IMG/VR virus record: IMGVR_UViG_3300009103_000055
Coordinates: 1-45,122 of that record
Origin: a virus
Direction: 5' to 3' (one strand)
DNA length: 45,122 bases
Shown in pieces: positions 1-45,122 of the stretch. The notes beneath the pieces are model-generated. The model made no database searches and was not told the origin of the DNA. It worked only from the letters and a program-made list of their open reading frames with translations. The translations under genes and the position numbers were made by a program. Numbering within the stretch: position 1 is the first letter of the stretch; every line of letters starts with the position of its first letter.

Positions 1-65
1 TAATTAAAACAAAAATAAAAATCGTTTTTTATGTGATTAAAAAACTGATTAAAAATGCGATTTTT
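1..65. repeat. Terminal direct repeat, left copy (65 bp)
   Basis: Bases 1-65 are identical to 45058-45122. This is what a linearised circular assembly looks like when a k-mer overlap is left at both ends, so the unit genome would be 45057 bp. A true short terminal redundancy of the virion DNA cannot be excluded from sequence. The copy contains an 8-bp inverted repeat (AAAAATCG at 17-24 against CGATTTTT at 58-65) and a repeated TGATTAAAAA at 34-43 and 46-55, spaced 12 bp apart. Confidence 0.95.
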
Positions 66-5828: not shown

Positions 5829-6467
5829 ATGCAAAACTTTGTAAACTATCAGATCGCCCTTACCCCTGAGAACGCACCGCTTATCGACAAGGTGAACGAG
5901 CTTATTTTAGGTGGTGAAACGGTTAAAGCGGAAACTAAGCCTGAACCTAAAGCTAAACCTGAGCCTAAAGCTAAGCCTGAGCCTAAAGCTAAGCCTGAGC
6001 CTAAAGCTAAAACTGAGCCTAAAGTTGAAGAAACTGCCGGTGTAGATATTAAGCTTGTTAAAGATGCTTTGCGAGCAGCTAAGAAAGAACACGGTGAAGA
6101 ATTCTGCCTTAGCTCTATGTTAGCCCTAGGTGGGGGTGAAGGTTTAAGCCTAACTAGAACTCTATCTAGCTTGGAAACATCTGTTCACCAAACACTAATT
6201 GATACTTTATCTGCTGGTCCTCAAGACGTAGATGTACCTGAAGAAGTAGACCTACCTGAAGATGATGGTTTAGGTGAAGATGATGGTTTAGGTGAAGATG
6301 ATGACGTACCTACTCCAGAAATGGTAAAAGATGCTCTTAAGGCTATGGCTAAGGTAGATCGCGCAGCGGCTAAAAAGCTAATGACCGACAACGGAGCCGA
6401 TAGTCTTAGTAAAGTAGCCGACTTAGGCCCAGAAGCCCTAAAAGCTATTATGCAAGGTGCTGTTTAA
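5829..6467 (+). CDS. Repeat-linker protein with two related helical domains (212 aa)
   Basis: Three parts are visible. After a short N-terminal region, residues about 36-67 are five copies of an 18-bp repeat (5940-6029) encoding Pro-Glu-Pro-Lys-Ala-Lys type units, a stiff charged linker. A helical segment follows (VKDALRAAKKEHGEEF) and the C-terminus repeats a similar pattern (VKDALKAMAKVDRAAAKKLM), separated by an acidic Asp/Glu stretch. The C-terminal pattern resembles a small helical domain seen at the ends of various phage proteins. Function is unknown. It sits before the DUF2800/DUF2815 recombination pair. Confidence 0.75.
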   Translation: MQNFVNYQIALTPENAPLIDKVNELILGGETVKAETKPEPKAKPEPKAKPEPKAKPEPKAKTEPKVEETAGVDIKLVKDALRAAKKEHGEEFCLSSMLALGGGEGLSLTRTLSSLETSVHQTLIDTLSAGPQDVDVPEEVDLPEDDGLGEDDGLGEDDDVPTPEMVKDALKAMAKVDRAAAKKLMTDNGADSLSKVADLGPEALKAIMQGAV

Positions 6468-8640: not shown

Positions 8641-9195
8641 ATGAATTTCATGATTGATTTTGATACTAGGAAAGTTTTATGTTTCTCAGAAGAAAAAGAA
8701 CCTTTACAAGAATATGTAGATTCTGAAGGTTTGGATATGGCTGTCGCTATAGTTAGCAATGAGGAAGAGCTCGCTTTGCAATTCTCATTCGATGAGCTTA
8801 GTGATTTGGCTGATAATGAATCTGTTGGATTGGAAAATCCTAGTACGGTTGAAATATGGGCACAGTTAGAAGATAACAGCTTGGACTACCACGAGTTCCC
8901 AGATATAGCTGATTTGGATGACCATGTAGCACCAGTTAAGACTAAGAAAACCAGCGCACCTAAACCCAAAGCTGAAAAACCTAAGAAGAGAGCTTCAAGT
9001 TACGAAGGTAAAACTTTCCAAGTGGGTAACGAAGAACCACCCAAAGGTCGGCATACTAAAATAGTTAAGTTTGTTGAGGAAAAAGGCGAAGCTACCTACG
9101 AGGAAATATGCGAGTTTGTGGGCGATTGTAAAGGCGGCCCTCAACAACATGTCAACTGGTCAGCTAAGAAAGGTTTTATACAGGAGGCTTTATGA
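8641..9195 (+). CDS. Hypothetical protein with basic linker and C-terminal helical domain (184 aa)
   Basis: Three parts are visible: an acidic N-terminal region (residues 1-95), a Lys/Pro/Ala-rich linker (KKTSAPKPKAEKPKKRAS, about 101-118) and a C-terminal domain of about 55 residues. The pattern of that last domain (TKIVKFVEEKGEATYEEICEF, then a basic stretch) looks like a winged-helix DNA-binding fold. The stop overlaps the start of the glycosyltransferase as ATGA, so the two are translationally coupled and may work together. No family was recognised, and the winged-helix idea is by eye only. Confidence 0.7.
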   Translation: MNFMIDFDTRKVLCFSEEKEPLQEYVDSEGLDMAVAIVSNEEELALQFSFDELSDLADNESVGLENPSTVEIWAQLEDNSLDYHEFPDIADLDDHVAPVKTKKTSAPKPKAEKPKKRASSYEGKTFQVGNEEPPKGRHTKIVKFVEEKGEATYEEICEFVGDCKGGPQQHVNWSAKKGFIQEAL

Positions 9196-9980
9196 TTGAG
9201 GACTTTACTATCTTCATACCGACTTCTGGTAGAACAGGTAGGCAAACAACATTGCACTCTTTACGCGTTAGCGATGAACTACTGTCTAAAACAATATTAG
9301 TTGTACCAGAAGACGAATACGAAGAGTATGAAGAAGAATACGGTTTAGAAGTAGATGTCTTGGCCTGTAACGCAAAAGGTATAGCCGCTACGCGCCAATA
9401 TATCGTAGATAACTGCGAAACCCCATATCTATTCATGCTAGACGACGACATGGTTTTCTTCAGGCGAGAATTCGAAAGTGTTAAACTGGCTAAAGCAACA
9501 CCTGAAGAATTGGAAGATATGTTCTCTACTTTGTTGTTCTGGTTACAATACGAAGGTTTTCCAATGGTCGGTGTTAGCGCTAGACAAGGTAATAATCATG
9601 TAGAAGAAGATTACCGCGATGTCACCCGGCAAATGAACTTCCATGGTATAAGTGTAGAAGCTTTTAGTAACTACATGCTAGATTATAGCGAAATTGAAGT
9701 TATGGAAGATTTCTATGTACTACTAGATCTATTTACTAAAGGTGGTAAGAACCGTGTGATGTACGAATACTGCTGGAATCAAAGAGGCTCAGGTGCTGAC
9801 GGCGGTTGTAGTTCTTATCGTGATAATGATATGCAATCTAGAGCGGCCAACCAACTAAAAGAAATGTTCCCAGAATTCGTAACCGTTGTGGAGAAGGAAT
9901 CCAAGAGTAGTTGGAAAGGTATGGAGAATAGAACCGATGTACGCGTACAATGGAAAAAAGCTTATGAATCTCACATCTAA
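9192..9980 (+). CDS. TET-associated-type glycosyltransferase (TAGT/GREB-like), putative DNA base modifier
   Basis: The protein is a GT-A type glycosyltransferase. It opens with FTIFIPTSGRTGRQTTLHSL, has VVPEDEYEEY near residue 38, GIAATRQYIV near 65 and the metal-binding MLDDDM with Asp 84-86. This pattern is that of the glycosyltransferases named for their association with TET/JBP oxygenases in phages, which put sugars on hydroxymethylated pyrimidines in DNA. No TET-like oxygenase is seen here. Instead a thymidylate-synthase-family gene follows 12 nt later. The usual GT-A donor is a nucleotide sugar; which sugar cannot be read. A surface-glycan role is the alternative. Confidence 0.75.
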   Translation: MIEDFTIFIPTSGRTGRQTTLHSLRVSDELLSKTILVVPEDEYEEYEEEYGLEVDVLACNAKGIAATRQYIVDNCETPYLFMLDDDMVFFRREFESVKLAKATPEELEDMFSTLLFWLQYEGFPMVGVSARQGNNHVEEDYRDVTRQMNFHGISVEAFSNYMLDYSEIEVMEDFYVLLDLFTKGGKNRVMYEYCWNQRGSGADGGCSSYRDNDMQSRAANQLKEMFPEFVTVVEKESKSSWKGMENRTDVRVQWKKAYESHI

Positions 9981-9992
9981 AGGTACTAAGAA

Positions 9993-11009
9993 ATGAAAGT
10001 AATAAACGCAAGAAACGTAAACGAAGCTTTACAATTAGGTGTAAATTATATATTCCAAGAAGGGGTAACGGTTAATAGTCGTAACGGTATGACATTGGAA
10101 GCACCTACGCCGGTAGCTACTGTTTACCAAAAACCAAACGAGAGAGTCCTTATCGATCCTGTTCGTGACGCTAACCCTTTCTTCCACTTCTTTGAATCTC
10201 TTTGGATTTTAGCTGGCCGTAAGGATGTTGAGTTCTTGACCGAATTCAATAAACAAATGGCTCTTTATTCCGATGACGGTGAGGAATTCAATGCGCCTTA
10301 TGGTTACCGTATGCGTTACGGCGTTAATATAGACAACGATCAGATACTAAACGTAATTAGTATTTTAAACGAAGATAAAGATAGTCGCCAAGCAGTTATT
10401 CAAATATGGGATGAAGCCGATCTGTATAAGAAAACTAAAGATAAAGCGTGCAATATGTCTGTTGTTTTCAAAATTAGAAAAGACAACAAGCTCCATATAA
10501 CTGTTTATAATCGCTCTAATGATATGTTATGGGGAGCTTATGGTGCTAACGTTGTGCAGTTTAGCATGCTCCAGGAATACGTGGCGGCGGCTCTAGATCG
10601 TAAGATAGGAACTTACACTCAAGTCTCCAATTCATACCACGTATACCTAACCGGTAAGGGTGGAGAACTAACTCAGAAAATGAAGGAGCGTCATTTTAAC
10701 CGAGGTATTATTTTTGACCCATATACGACTGACGAAATGGTAAATATGTCTATCGACCCTTACGATTTTGAAGCATTTGATCACGATCTTAGGTTGTTCT
10801 TTGATAGCTATGATGAGGATAGATTAGAAGCCTGTTTAGATAAAACTTATAATTCTCCTTATTTCACAATGCTAGTATTACCTATGCTGAGAACTTTCAG
10901 AACTCACAAGTTAATCGGCCCAGGCGAAGCTTTACGACAATTAGATTCTATCGGCAGTGATGATTGGGCGATTGCTTGTGAACAATGGTTGCGCAACCGG
11001 ATAAAGTAG
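9993..11009 (+). CDS. Thymidylate-synthase-family enzyme, probable pyrimidine hydroxymethylase
   Basis: Core features of thymidylate synthase are present. The catalytic Cys is residue 153 in KACNMSVVFKI, preceded by DSRQAVIQIW. YNRSNDMLWGAYGANVV follows, with Asn 186 aligning by eye with the TS Asn that recognises uracil. In T4 dCMP hydroxymethylase this position is Asp, so uracil is the likelier substrate. The His after the catalytic Cys is replaced by Asn, and Trp residues around the folate site are absent (NAPYGYRMRYG), as in phage hydroxymethylase variants. The product would be hydroxymethyl-dUMP or dTMP. Length is 338 aa. Confidence 0.85.
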   Translation: MKVINARNVNEALQLGVNYIFQEGVTVNSRNGMTLEAPTPVATVYQKPNERVLIDPVRDANPFFHFFESLWILAGRKDVEFLTEFNKQMALYSDDGEEFNAPYGYRMRYGVNIDNDQILNVISILNEDKDSRQAVIQIWDEADLYKKTKDKACNMSVVFKIRKDNKLHITVYNRSNDMLWGAYGANVVQFSMLQEYVAAALDRKIGTYTQVSNSYHVYLTGKGGELTQKMKERHFNRGIIFDPYTTDEMVNMSIDPYDFEAFDHDLRLFFDSYDEDRLEACLDKTYNSPYFTMLVLPMLRTFRTHKLIGPGEALRQLDSIGSDDWAIACEQWLRNRIK

Positions 11010-11017
11010 TTTATAAT
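10989..11017 (+). promoter_or_regulatory. Internal promoter before the HD nucleotidase (predicted)
   Basis: TTGCGC (10989-10994) and TATAAT (11012-11017), a perfect -10, are separated by 17 nt. It overlaps the 3' end of the TS-family gene and would start about 25 nt before the ATG at 11048. Confidence 0.6.
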
Positions 11018-11047
11018 TGAAAACACACTCAAAACAGGAAAACAGAA

Positions 11048-11575
11048 ATGAATATTAACAAACTCAAAACAATCAGGAAAGGTCTTAAAGTTGAGCGCTT
11101 ACATACAATACCTCACGTTCAACCTTATAATAATGGTTTTCATTCTGCTAACGCGGCCTTAATAGCTTTAGAGTTGTGTAAAACTAATAATGTAGATTAT
11201 CATCGAAGTTTTATAATAACTCGATATATGTTACTCCACGATGTTGCAGAAGGTTACACCGGCGATATACCTGCAAACGTTAAGTGGGATAATCCTCATC
11301 TAGCAGGGATGTTAGAAAGTTTGGAAAGAGATTGGGGTAGGGCTAAAGATTTAGATATACCCACTTTACCTGATAACTGTAAAGCTATCTGCAAAGTAGC
11401 CGACCTAGCTGAGCTGGGGTTCTACGCAGTTGATGAGATCAAAATGGGCAATTCCAATATGTATGTTGTTTCTGAGAATGTTATCGATGCTTTAAACAAA
11501 ATTAGCCAGTCTACACGCTTAGAAGGTGTAGACGAACTCATAACTTATATTAAAGGGGGTTCAAGATGGAAGTAA
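11048..11575 (+). CDS. HD-domain 5'-deoxynucleotidase (YfbR-like)
   Basis: The metal-binding HD pattern is complete: His32 (GFHSAN), His64-Asp65 (LLHDVAEG) and a later Asp in CKVADLAEL near residue 120. TGDIP directly after the HD pair and the 175-aa length match YfbR-type enzymes, which remove the phosphate from deoxynucleoside monophosphates. In a phage with a modified base such an enzyme can drain the normal monophosphate so that the modified one is used. It has its own promoter and an AACAGGAAAACAGAA leader. The specific substrate cannot be told from sequence. Confidence 0.85.
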   Translation: MNINKLKTIRKGLKVERLHTIPHVQPYNNGFHSANAALIALELCKTNNVDYHRSFIITRYMLLHDVAEGYTGDIPANVKWDNPHLAGMLESLERDWGRAKDLDIPTLPDNCKAICKVADLAELGFYAVDEIKMGNSNMYVVSENVIDALNKISQSTRLEGVDELITYIKGGSRWK

Positions 11576-11985
11576 ATGATTATCAAGTAGGGGGAGACCA
11601 CTACAATAAACGTAAGTATCAACATTGGGATATGGTTATCGATACCGGTATGCACTATGTCTTAGCTTGCGCTACTAAATACGTTAGCCGCTGGCGTGAT
11701 AAAAATGGTGTTGAAGATTTGCGTAAATGCGCTCAGTACATTAGCAAAGCCGTAGAAAGCAACATATCAGGCTTACCAGCTAACGTTAATGATAAGTATG
11801 AAGAAGTAGATAGGTTCGCAAAACAGCACGATAAGCTATTAGATTCAGAAATCATAAAGTTAATATCTTTTGGTTTTTACGGCGAGGCTACTGACTTACT
11901 AAATGTCACAATTAGAAATATAGAAGCCGGTAGATTATCAGCTCACGGCGAACCGACATCTTCATACACAAATCAGGATAGATAA
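11566..11985 (+). CDS. DUF3310 protein (139 aa)
   Basis: The first 70 residues match the DUF3310 family: QVGGDHYNKRKYQHWDMV, then a helix leading to ATKYVSRWRDKNGVEDLRKC. The family is common in phage nucleotide-metabolism regions, sometimes labelled nucleotide kinase-like, but its activity has not been firmly settled to my knowledge. The last 60 residues are an extra helical tail. The start overlaps the HD gene end by 10 nt, with GGGGG upstream. Its place between a nucleotidase and dCTP deaminase supports a nucleotide-pool role. Confidence 0.8.
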   Translation: MEVNDYQVGGDHYNKRKYQHWDMVIDTGMHYVLACATKYVSRWRDKNGVEDLRKCAQYISKAVESNISGLPANVNDKYEEVDRFAKQHDKLLDSEIIKLISFGFYGEATDLLNVTIRNIEAGRLSAHGEPTSSYTNQDR

Positions 11986-11986
11986 A

Positions 11987-12532
11987 ATGTCATTAATTAG
12001 TTATAACGGTTTAGTAAAATTGGTAGAACAAGGTGTAATCGACGCACCGATGGAAAATATTAACGGCGCATCGATAGATATCACTTTGGATGATATTATT
12101 ATGATGGAGAACGTACCAGGGGCTTACGGGCCGGTAAACCTTAAAGAAAAAGAAACCATTTGTATGGATGAATGTAATATTGCTCATCGCACTATTACGT
12201 TACCTCCTGGAGAGTTTATACTAGCTAGTTCCAGGGAAACTTTCAATCTTCCCAATAATATTGCGGCTGAGTACAAGCTTAAAAGTTCCTTAGCACGTTC
12301 AGGTCTTCAGCACTTATTAGCAGGTTGGGCAGACCCTAGTTGGAATAACAGTAAATTGACCTTGGAGCTTAAGAATATAACTCGGTCACATTATTTACAA
12401 CTGGAACCAGGTATGAAGATAGGCCAGATGGTTTTCTGGGAATGCGAACCTGTACCAGAAGAACACGGTTATGCTTCCAAAGGGCAATATAACAACCAAA
12501 AATCTGTAACGGCTAGTAAAGGTGTAAGATGA
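11987..12532 (+). CDS. dcd: dCTP deaminase / dUTPase-fold protein
   Basis: The protein matches the dCTP deaminase family. LPPGEFILASSRETF is followed by KLKSSLARSGLQHLLAGWADPSW, with Ser/Arg positions of the nucleotide pocket, and by TLELKN, whose Glu is the general base. Then comes LEPGMKIGQMVFW. The reaction is dCTP to dUTP, or to dUMP in bifunctional members. The bacterial Arg before SSLAR is Lys here. The product feeds dUMP to a thymidylate-synthase-type enzyme, in line with the gene at 9993. It is coupled by ATGA to the DNA polymerase. Confidence 0.87.
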   Translation: MSLISYNGLVKLVEQGVIDAPMENINGASIDITLDDIIMMENVPGAYGPVNLKEKETICMDECNIAHRTITLPPGEFILASSRETFNLPNNIAAEYKLKSSLARSGLQHLLAGWADPSWNNSKLTLELKNITRSHYLQLEPGMKIGQMVFWECEPVPEEHGYASKGQYNNQKSVTASKGVR

Positions 12533-14370
12533 CAAAAGGCGTAGTTGTGTACGACGTAGAGTGCTATATCAACTACGTCCTTATTAAGTTCAAAAACCTG
12601 CAAAGCGGTAAGATTGCGGGTTTTGAAATGTTCCATGATTCACAAATAGAGATAGGTAAAATCCTATGGATTCTTAATAATTACACATGCGTCACCTTCA
12701 ACGGTATTAAGTACGATTCTGTTATAGTCGATGCTCTTGTAGCCGGTTATAATAACAAAACTATCAAGGCTATATCTGATGATCTTATTGTTGAAAACAA
12801 ACAACCTTGGATGGTAAGAAGAGATTATAATATCGAGGAATTAGACTACGATCATATTGACTTGATGGAAGTAGCCCCTCTTAAGGCTTCTCTTAAGTTG
12901 TACGGTGGTAGGTTGCATTCTGAGAAGCTACAAGACCTACCTATAGAACCTTCAGCCGTAGTAACCAGAGAAGAAGCTGATCTCCTAGATAGGTATTGCG
13001 ATAACGACTTAGCAGTTACTGAAATGATGTTCAACCATCTAAAAGGGGAAATTGAACTACGCGCTAAAATGTCTGAAGAATACGGCGTTGATTTAAGATC
13101 CAAATCCGATGCTCAAATCGCTGAGGCGGTTATACGTAACGAACTGGAAATTAAGTACGGCAAGCAACCCAAACGCCCTAAGATAGCAGTAGGTACGCAA
13201 TATAACTATAAAGCGCCGCATAATTTACACTTTAAAAATCCAGTGTTAAAAGATTTGTTTGAGCAATATACGAACAGACCTTTCGTAGTTAGTAAGAGCG
13301 GACATGCTGAATTTGAATTTGAGATAAGGGAAGAGGATCGTAATAAGAAAGGGGTGTTGCCCGATTCTAAGAAAAAGCTAAAATTCCAAATAGGTTCCAC
13401 TACGTATACCGCTGGGGTTGGGGGATTACATAGTTGTGAGAAGAAATCACGCCACACCAATGATAATTGTATACTTAGGGATTACGACGTGGCTAGTTAT
13501 TACCCGCGTATTATCCTTAATAACGAACTGTACCCCAAGCATATAGGTAGGGAATTCTTATCTATCTATAATTCCATAGTTAACAGGAGGCTAAAAGCCA
13601 AGAAAGAAGGCGATAAAATTACAAATGAAAGTTTGAAAATTACCATTAACGGTTCTTTCGGCAAGTTCGGTAATAAATGGTCATGTATATACTCACCAGA
13701 TTTAATGATGCAAGTGACTATCACTGGGCAACTTAGTTTGATAATGCTGATAGAGAAGTTAGAAGATGCTGGTATCCAGGTTGTTAGTGCTAATACCGAT
13801 GGTATCGTAACCAAAATACCTTACGAACTAGAAAGCTTAGCTGAGGAAATAACTTCAGATTGGGAATTTGAAACTGGTTATGATTTAGAAGGTACGGATT
13901 ACCTGAGCCTTAATAGTAGGGATGTGAATAACTACATAGCTGTTAAAGAATCAGGGTGTAAAGGTAAGGGCGCGTATTCAGATAAAAGTGACCACTTCTA
14001 CATGCTTAGGAGTAATCCAACTTCTGATATATGCGTAGAAGCTGTTAAGGAGTTTTTATCAAATAAAATACCATTGGAAAAAACTATCAGGGGATGTGGC
14101 GATATAAGGAAATTTTTAACTCTTAGGACGGTTAATGGCGGGGCTATTAAGGATAACGTGTTGTTAGGTAAGGCTATCCGCTGGTATTATGGGGCGCATG
14201 AACTCGATGCTATCTATTATAAAACTAGCGGCAATAAAGTTCCTAAATCTGACGGCGGCGTACCTATTATGGACCTACCTAAAAACTTACCTGGAGATTT
14301 AGATTACGAGTACTATGTGGATAACGCTAGATCTATATTAAAAGACATAGGTTATAAAATAACAATATAA
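12529..14370 (+). CDS. Family B DNA polymerase, compact phage type (613 aa)
   Basis: Both activities are visible. The 3'-5' exonuclease has Exo I YDVEC (Asp9, Glu11), Exo II TFNGIKYDS near residue 63 and Exo III YCDNDLAVTE near 155. The polymerase has motif A RDYDVASYYPR near 317, motif B LKITINGSFGKFG near 370 and motif C SANTDGI near 421, where the usual D-T-D is N-T-D. The protein is shorter than cellular family B enzymes. No terminal protein gene is evident, so priming probably comes from the primase-helicase. Confidence 0.93.
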   Translation: MTKGVVVYDVECYINYVLIKFKNLQSGKIAGFEMFHDSQIEIGKILWILNNYTCVTFNGIKYDSVIVDALVAGYNNKTIKAISDDLIVENKQPWMVRRDYNIEELDYDHIDLMEVAPLKASLKLYGGRLHSEKLQDLPIEPSAVVTREEADLLDRYCDNDLAVTEMMFNHLKGEIELRAKMSEEYGVDLRSKSDAQIAEAVIRNELEIKYGKQPKRPKIAVGTQYNYKAPHNLHFKNPVLKDLFEQYTNRPFVVSKSGHAEFEFEIREEDRNKKGVLPDSKKKLKFQIGSTTYTAGVGGLHSCEKKSRHTNDNCILRDYDVASYYPRIILNNELYPKHIGREFLSIYNSIVNRRLKAKKEGDKITNESLKITINGSFGKFGNKWSCIYSPDLMMQVTITGQLSLIMLIEKLEDAGIQVVSANTDGIVTKIPYELESLAEEITSDWEFETGYDLEGTDYLSLNSRDVNNYIAVKESGCKGKGAYSDKSDHFYMLRSNPTSDICVEAVKEFLSNKIPLEKTIRGCGDIRKFLTLRTVNGGAIKDNVLLGKAIRWYYGAHELDAIYYKTSGNKVPKSDGGVPIMDLPKNLPGDLDYEYYVDNARSILKDIGYKITI

Positions 14371-45057: not shown

Positions 45058-45122
45058 TAATTAAAACAAAAATAAAAATCGTTTTTTATGTGATTAAAAA
45101 ACTGATTAAAAATGCGATTTTT
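45058..45122. repeat. Terminal direct repeat, right copy (65 bp)
   Basis: Exact copy of bases 1-65. Joining the two copies closes the circle in an intergenic region between the minus-strand gene ending at 190 and the minus-strand HigA-like gene starting at 44991, so no gene is broken at the junction. Confidence 0.95.

What the first reader, a model, noticed from the sequence alone, without database searches (positions are those of the whole stretch)
9192..12532. Candidate DNA base hypermodification module without a TET oxygenase
A TET-associated-type glycosyltransferase (Asp 84-86 triad; IPTSGR, GIAATRQ and MLDDDM pieces) is followed by a thymidylate-synthase-family enzyme that keeps the catalytic Cys153 and a uracil-type Asn186 but lacks several folate-site Trp, an HD 5'-deoxynucleotidase, and dCTP deaminase. 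Known members of that glycosyltransferase group sit beside TET oxygenases that make the hydroxymethyl acceptor after replication. Here the acceptor could instead be made at the monophosphate level: dCTP to dUMP, then 5-hydroxymethyl-dUMP, with normal dTMP removed by the HD enzyme. The module would then glycosylate hydroxymethyluracil in DNA. A missing piece is a kinase for the modified monophosphate.
Basis: partly seen in the sequence, partly recalled or inferred. Interest (0 to 1): 0.78.

Follow-up and report, generated by a model that had tools for sequence, protein, structure and literature searches.

The report
Phage module for sugar-coated hydroxymethyluracil DNA
A small virus of bacteria appears to build its DNA with hydroxymethyluracil in place of thymine and then attach a sugar to it with one glycosyltransferase, a two-enzyme route to a DNA base like the 'base J' of trypanosomes that I did not find reported in phages.

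Summary
The genome looks complete (65-bp terminal repeat); TET, 5hmU-DNA kinase, HMUDK_hel and thymidylate kinase were not found. The synthase homologue has the residues of dUMP hydroxymethylases (SPO1 gp29, phage M6): catalytic Cys, His147 to Asn, Asn177, both folate-site Trp lost.

In 17 related loci readable upstream, the slot before this hydroxymethylase is swappable: 5hmU-DNA kinase, GT-B glycosyltransferase, or TAGT with or without extra genes. Across 59 TAGT sequence clusters, 43 lie near a dUMP-type hydroxymethylase, 4 near a dCMP-type and 6 near TET; none has both.

Special here, and in a Manatee Spring phage, is the pared-down form: the other 41 dUMP-type clusters also carry HMUDK_hel, the partner of the 5hmU kinase. 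Predicted product: glycosyl-5-hydroxymethyluracil. Sugar, linkage and activity are untested.

The parts
9192..9980 (+). TAGT-family (GT-A) glycosyltransferase, proposed to glycosylate hmU in DNA
   Evidence: PF20691 1.5e-20; phrog_842 2.5e-56; DDD 84-86 invariant; viral fold neighbours are TAGTs
9993..11009 (+). dUMP hydroxymethylase (thymidylate-synthase superfamily)
   Evidence: residue pattern of SPO1 gp29 and M6; phrog_5131 3.9e-106; nearest solved fold MilA hydroxymethylase
11048..11575 (+). HD-family YfbR-like 5'-deoxynucleotidase, proposed to trim competing dNMPs
   Evidence: PF12917 3.2e-12; HD motif; same position in M6 and MW202897
11566..11985 (+). DUF3310 protein, conserved module neighbour of unknown role
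   Evidence: PF11753 3.2e-06; conserved next to HMase-HD
11987..12532 (+). dCTP deaminase, proposed feeder of the dUMP pool
   Evidence: TIGR02274 96.9 bits over cut-off 92.8; PF22769 9.2e-31
12529..14370 (+). phage DNA polymerase, proposed to incorporate hmdUTP
   Evidence: phrog_1252 2.1e-189
1..65 (.). left copy of 65-bp direct terminal repeat (suggests a complete or circular genome)
   Evidence: identical to 45058-45122
45058..45122 (.). right copy of the terminal repeat

Best explanation
A TET-independent DNA hypermodification module. The dUMP hydroxymethylase converts dUMP to 5-hydroxymethyl-dUMP; dCTP deaminase helps supply dUMP and the HD enzyme trims competing deoxynucleotides. A thymidylate kinase, probably the host's, leads to hmdUTP, which the phage polymerase incorporates in place of some or all dTTP. 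The TAGT then transfers a sugar from a host nucleotide-sugar to the hydroxymethyl group of hmU in DNA, giving glycosyl-5-hydroxymethyluracil, chemically like base J. Shown here: gene identities, active-site residues, probable completeness, gene order, absences, and the slot swap with a 5hmU-DNA-kinase relative. Inferred: activities, pool roles, kinase source, DNA as the acceptor, sugar and linkage, protection from host nucleases.
For: HMase residues identical in type to SPO1 gp29 and M6, not ThyA or T4 gp42; MilA is the nearest solved hydroxymethylase by sequence and fold; nearest named phages are the M6/YuA group, whose DNA carries hmdU-derived bases (PMC6449724). The TAGT slot in sibling phages holds a 5-hmdU-DNA-kinase relative, a GT-B or a TAGT. 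Census: 43 of 59 TAGT clusters near a dUMP-type HMase, 6 near TET, none with both. A second complete genome, MW202897, has the same TAGT-HMase-HD-DUF3310 set without HMUDK_hel. T4 beta-GT can glucosylate 5hmU in single-stranded or G-mispaired DNA, so the chemistry is feasible (PMC4111573).
Against: No biochemistry. 41 of 43 dUMP-type TAGT clusters also carry HMUDK_hel, which the window lacks, so this GT may lack a needed partner. The TAGT model is only moderate (pLDDT 68.5) and its PDB neighbours are generic GT-A enzymes. No phage thymidylate kinase. The census profiles came mainly from HMase-associated TAGTs.
Confidence: 0.74

Rival explanations
1. Ordinary thymidylate synthase plus an unrelated glycosyltransferase that modifies host surface sugars or virion proteins.
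For: TAGT PDB fold neighbours include cell-wall and polysaccharide GTs such as TarS, TarP, WrtF and K4CP.
Against: Both folate-site Trp lost and His147 is Asn; MilA outranks all TS; TAGT is in the slot of a 5hmU-DNA-kinase relative; TAGT/HMase pairing recurs in 43 clusters; viral fold neighbours are TAGTs.
Confidence: 0.07
2. hmU is made and placed in DNA, but the GT is inactive or unused because its HMUDK_hel partner is lost, leaving bare hmU as in SPO1.
For: HMUDK_hel is near-universal in HMase-linked TAGT clusters (41 of 43) and absent here.
Against: The GT keeps every position invariant across 10 diverse TAGTs including D84-86; TET-linked TAGT clusters lack HMUDK_hel too (0 of 6); MW202897, in another TAGT branch, keeps the same reduced set.
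Confidence: 0.11
3. The final base is more elaborate than a simple sugar, through unrecognised window genes acting after the GT.
For: Sibling loci pair TAGT with radical SAM, a second TAGT-like GT and HMUDK_hel.
Against: None of those is in the window and replication-region ORFs scanned showed no other tailoring enzyme.
Confidence: 0.06
4. Cytosine pathway as in T4: the TS homologue makes hmdCMP (or hydroxy-dCMP like AfhB) and the GT decorates modified C.
For: T-even TAGTs act on glucosyl-hmC (PMC13216743); two TAGT loci, L122 and L123, have dCMP-type HMases.
Against: Asn at the specificity position, not Asp (meaning from PMC8670742); AfhB is a much weaker fold match than MilA (5e-12 vs 1e-18); dCTP deaminase in the operon would work against a C pathway (inference).
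Confidence: 0.02

Closest known systems
Thymidine hypermodification of Pseudomonas phage M6 / YuA group
   Same: dUMP-type hydroxymethylase (39-41% identity in the group), followed by HD nucleotidase and DNA polymerase in the same order; hmdU in DNA as the handle (PMC6449724)
   Different: M6 has 5-hmdU DNA kinase (PF18748), HMUDK_hel and the amino acid:DNA transferase ADDT and no TAGT listed in the region; the window has a TAGT and none of those
T-even phages: dCMP hydroxymethylase plus DNA glucosyltransferases, including TAGT (T6, HP3)
   Same: monophosphate-level hydroxymethylation, then sugar added in DNA; TAGT next to the hydroxymethylase
   Different: cytosine not uracil; in T2/T6 the TAGT adds a second sugar to an already glucosylated base (PMC13216743); window GT about 25% identical to HP3 TAGT
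TET/JBP-associated TAGT systems
   Same: same GT family, 39% identity to the L099 TET-linked TAGT; one GT, no HMUDK_hel
   Different: hydroxymethyl group made after replication by TET, no hydroxymethylase
Base J pathway of kinetoplastids (JBP1/2 plus JGT)
   Same: predicted product is a sugar on hydroxymethyluracil
   Different: T is oxidised in DNA by TET-family JBP there; hmU would be made before replication here; sugar and linkage unknown
SPO1 / SP8 hmU phages
   Same: dUMP hydroxymethylase with the same active-site pattern (gp29)
   Different: described as carrying 5hmdU without added sugar; no TAGT seen in the SPO1 region read

Membership tests
dUMP hydroxymethylase (SPO1 gp29 / M6 type) | catalytic Cys and uracil-type Asn (ThyA C146, N177) | tested here: met
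   Cys153 and Asn186
dUMP hydroxymethylase (SPO1 gp29 / M6 type) | loss of folate-site Trp80/Trp83 and Asn at 147, as in SPO1 gp29 | tested here: met
   W80 absent, W83 Tyr, H147 Asn; same type in SPO1 and M6
dUMP hydroxymethylase (SPO1 gp29 / M6 type) | dUMP to hmdUMP activity | not testable with these tools
   needs an enzyme assay
Thymidylate synthase (ThyA) | Trp80/Trp83 and His147 of the methylase active site | tested here: not met
   NCBIfam ThyA equivalogs far below cut-off
dCMP hydroxymethylase (T4 gp42) | Asp at the pyrimidine-specificity position | tested here: not met
   Asn186 in the window
TAGT glycosyltransferase (PF20691) | sequence over the family cut-off with its Asp motif | tested here: met
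   74.5 bits vs 27.5; D84-86 invariant
TET/JBP-TAGT modification system | TET/JBP dioxygenase in the genome | tested here: not met
   no PF12851 match in the record
M6-type thymidine hypermodification module | hydroxymethylase-HD core beside the polymerase | tested here: met
M6-type thymidine hypermodification module | 5-hmdU DNA kinase and HMUDK_hel | tested here: not met
YfbR-like 5'-deoxynucleotidase | family profile over cut-off and HD metal motif | tested here: met
   47 bits vs 25.9; H64-D65; substrate not tested
dCTP deaminase | equivalog profile over curated cut-off | tested here: met
   TIGR02274 96.9 vs 92.8; whether it also acts on dUTP was not tested
Base J or base-J-like product | glycosyl-hmU present in DNA | not testable with these tools
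   needs virion DNA and LC-MS

The most novel reading that the evidence does not exclude
A pared-down, TET-free pathway in which one hydroxymethylase and one TAGT make glycosyl-5-hydroxymethyluracil (a base-J-like nucleotide) across a phage genome. It belongs to a large class in which TAGTs use hmU made before replication, with HMUDK_hel as an exchangeable hmU-DNA recognition partner shared by kinases and glycosyltransferases that this lineage has dispensed with.
Probability: 0.5. Interest if true: 0.78.

Novelty: new variant of a known kind. Interest (0 to 1): 0.62.

Why it matters
[quoted passage not shown] The pairing found here gives many such TAGTs a testable substrate: hmU made by a dUMP hydroxymethylase. 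If right, base-J-like DNA may be widespread in viruses, and this module is about the simplest recipe for it, useful for making glycosyl-hmU DNA and for studying defence against modified thymines.

Tried and rejected
Capsule/LPS GT reading: PDB fold hits are generic GT-A, but viral fold hits are TAGTs and the context is DNA modification. Ordinary TS rejected on residues. Cytosine reading rejected on Asn186. Fragment explanation for missing genes weakened by the terminal repeat. A single-sequence TAGT search of viral contigs found nothing; alignment queries were needed. A TAGT scan of bacterial genomes confirmed no relative, so no host is assigned. HMUDK_hel had no significant solved relative. 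In the second half of the census TET was sought with one TET protein only, so a divergent TET could be missed there; the Pfam TET model was used for the window and the first set. Some distant members, such as L120 and the second GT of L014, do not reach PF20691. C-terminal TS positions could not be compared reliably. Deep branching in the HMase tree is unresolved. Key papers (Iyer 2013, Lee 2018, Lee 2021, Lee 2025) were not held, so an earlier prediction of the hmU-hydroxymethylase/TAGT pairing cannot be excluded; PMC4111573 reports earlier proposals that TAGTs glycosylate hmU made by JBP-like enzymes and that mycobacteriophage Acadian may make GlcNAc-5hmU.
Full report
CHECK OF THE OBSERVATION. 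The 9192 product is a TAGT-family glycosyltransferase (PF20691, 74.5 bits against a 27.5 cut-off; phrog_842). The 9993 product is TS-family. The 11048 product is YfbR-like HD and the 11987 product passes the dCTP deaminase equivalog cut-off. The contig ends are a 65-bp direct repeat, and the rest includes a myovirus-like structural block (tail sheath, baseplate, portal, terminase). It is probably one complete genome of about 45.06 kb, so genes not found are probably truly missing.

THE TS HOMOLOGUE LOOKS LIKE A dUMP HYDROXYMETHYLASE. Aligned with E. coli ThyA, T4 gp42, SPO1 gp29 and M6 gp58, the window enzyme keeps the catalytic Cys, has Asn at the pyrimidine-specificity position (meaning of 177 and 147 from PMC8670742), has Asn where ThyA has His147, lacks W80 and has Tyr at W83. 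SPO1 gp29, annotated as dUMP hydroxymethylase, and M6 have the same type of pattern. Its nearest solved structures by sequence and by predicted fold (mean pLDDT 91.6) are the MilA hydroxymethylase, ahead of all thymidylate synthases. Its nearest named phages are led by the M6/YuA group and Pam3; M6 DNA carries hmdU-derived bases (PMC6449724). In the tree it lies in a supported clade of nine virus sequences (97/98).

THE SLOT UPSTREAM IS SWAPPABLE. Twenty loci on 19 contigs encode HMases at 53-61% best-segment identity, and wherever the fetched stretch is long enough they share HD and DUF3310, and mostly DCD and POL, with the window. Seventeen loci could be read upstream. There the slot holds: a P-loop kinase plus HMUDK_hel (L002, L005, L006, L016); a GT-B glycosyltransferase plus HMUDK_hel (L004, L008, L009, L012); TAGT plus radical SAM plus HMUDK_hel (L010, L011, L013, L017); TAGT plus a second TAGT-like GT plus HMUDK_hel (L014, L015, L020, L021); TAGT plus HMUDK_hel (L019). 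The kinase is a 5-hmdU DNA kinase relative: L005 and L006 just pass PF18748, while L002 and L016 fall below the cut-off. M6 has the same kinase, HMUDK_hel, HMase, HD, polymerase order. The TAGT thus occupies the place of an enzyme class known to act on hmU in DNA (PMC6449724).

CENSUS. Two profile scans of virus contigs, pooled with siblings and named phages, gave 117 TAGT loci in 59 clusters at 70% identity. A dUMP-type HMase (Cys-Asn...Asn) is in the fetched stretch of 43 clusters, often within 1 kb; a dCMP-type in 4; TET in 6; no source in 5; one had only a poor partial TS match. None had both TET and HMase (P about 2e-5 if clusters were independent, which they are not fully). HMUDK_hel is in 41 of 43 dUMP-type and 0 of 6 TET clusters. 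The two exceptions are the window and MW202897 (Manatee Spring myovirus, circular complete record), which fall in different TAGT branches. The scan profiles came mainly from HMase-associated TAGTs, so the proportions are biased, and TET detection in the second set used one query only.

MECHANISM. Shown: gene content, residues, order, absences, swap. Inferred: DCD and HD shape the pool; hmdUMP is phosphorylated by a host kinase (no phage thymidylate kinase; human thymidylate kinase is implicated for hmdUMP, PMC10603095; phiW-14-infected cells contain hmdUTP, PMC5977210); the polymerase incorporates hmdUTP; the TAGT adds a sugar. T4 beta-GT glucosylates 5hmU in single-stranded or G-mispaired DNA, so the chemistry is possible (PMC4111573). 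The sugar and linkage cannot be predicted; no sugar-nucleotide synthesis gene was recognised in the ORFs scanned.

WEAK POINTS. The TAGT model is moderate (pLDDT 68.5); its PDB neighbours are generic GT-A, though viral-library neighbours are TAGTs. HMUDK_hel may be a needed partner elsewhere. Its absence here means either that this GT works alone, as TET-linked TAGTs apparently do, or that it is impaired.

NOVELTY. TAGTs without TET are known in T-even phages and solitary TAGTs have been noted (PMC13216743). hmU hypermodification is known in M6 and ViI (PMC6449724). A JBP-linked hmU-glycosylating role for TAGTs was proposed earlier (cited in PMC4111573). Joining hydroxymethylase-made hmU to TAGT glycosylation was not found in the papers that could be read, but several key papers were not held. 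Rated a new variant of a known kind.

Noticed in passing
L005:7151-7999, L008:7106-7999, L010:6957-7826, L014:2069-2944, L019:7132-7998: HMUDK_hel (PF18723), the partner of the 5hmU-DNA kinase in M6, stays constant while the catalytic enzyme beside it changes between kinase, GT-B and TAGT; it may be a general hmU-DNA recognition subunit.
   Followed up: partly
L014:1251-2015, L015, L020:5141-5866, L021:3077-3841: A second, divergent TAGT-like glycosyltransferase follows the first in some siblings, which suggests a disaccharide or two alternative sugars on hmU.
   Followed up: partly
L004:5635-6894, L008:5896-7143, L009:5896-7143: In four sibling phages an unrelated GT-B (group 1) glycosyltransferase takes the TAGT slot beside the same hydroxymethylase, a possible independent hmU glycosyltransferase.
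   Followed up: no
L010:5896-6960, L013:1411-2532, L017:191-1255: A radical SAM/SPASM protein sits between TAGT and HMUDK_hel in some siblings; its substrate (sugar or base) is unknown.
   Followed up: no
L122 (ts at 2390), L123 (ts at 13078): Two TAGT plus HMUDK_hel loci have dCMP-type hydroxymethylases (Cys-Thr...Asp), so HMUDK_hel is not confined to uracil pathways.
   Followed up: no
L082:6716-7279 (M6 gp054): The M6 protein matching PF18748 (5-hmdU DNA kinase) is annotated 'terminase small subunit', and sibling kinases hit phrog_800 under the same misleading name.
   Followed up: yes
window 5829-6467: Protein with a lysine/proline/glutamate-rich repeat (KPEPKA units) at the start of the replication operon, conserved in position in siblings; function unknown.
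   Followed up: no
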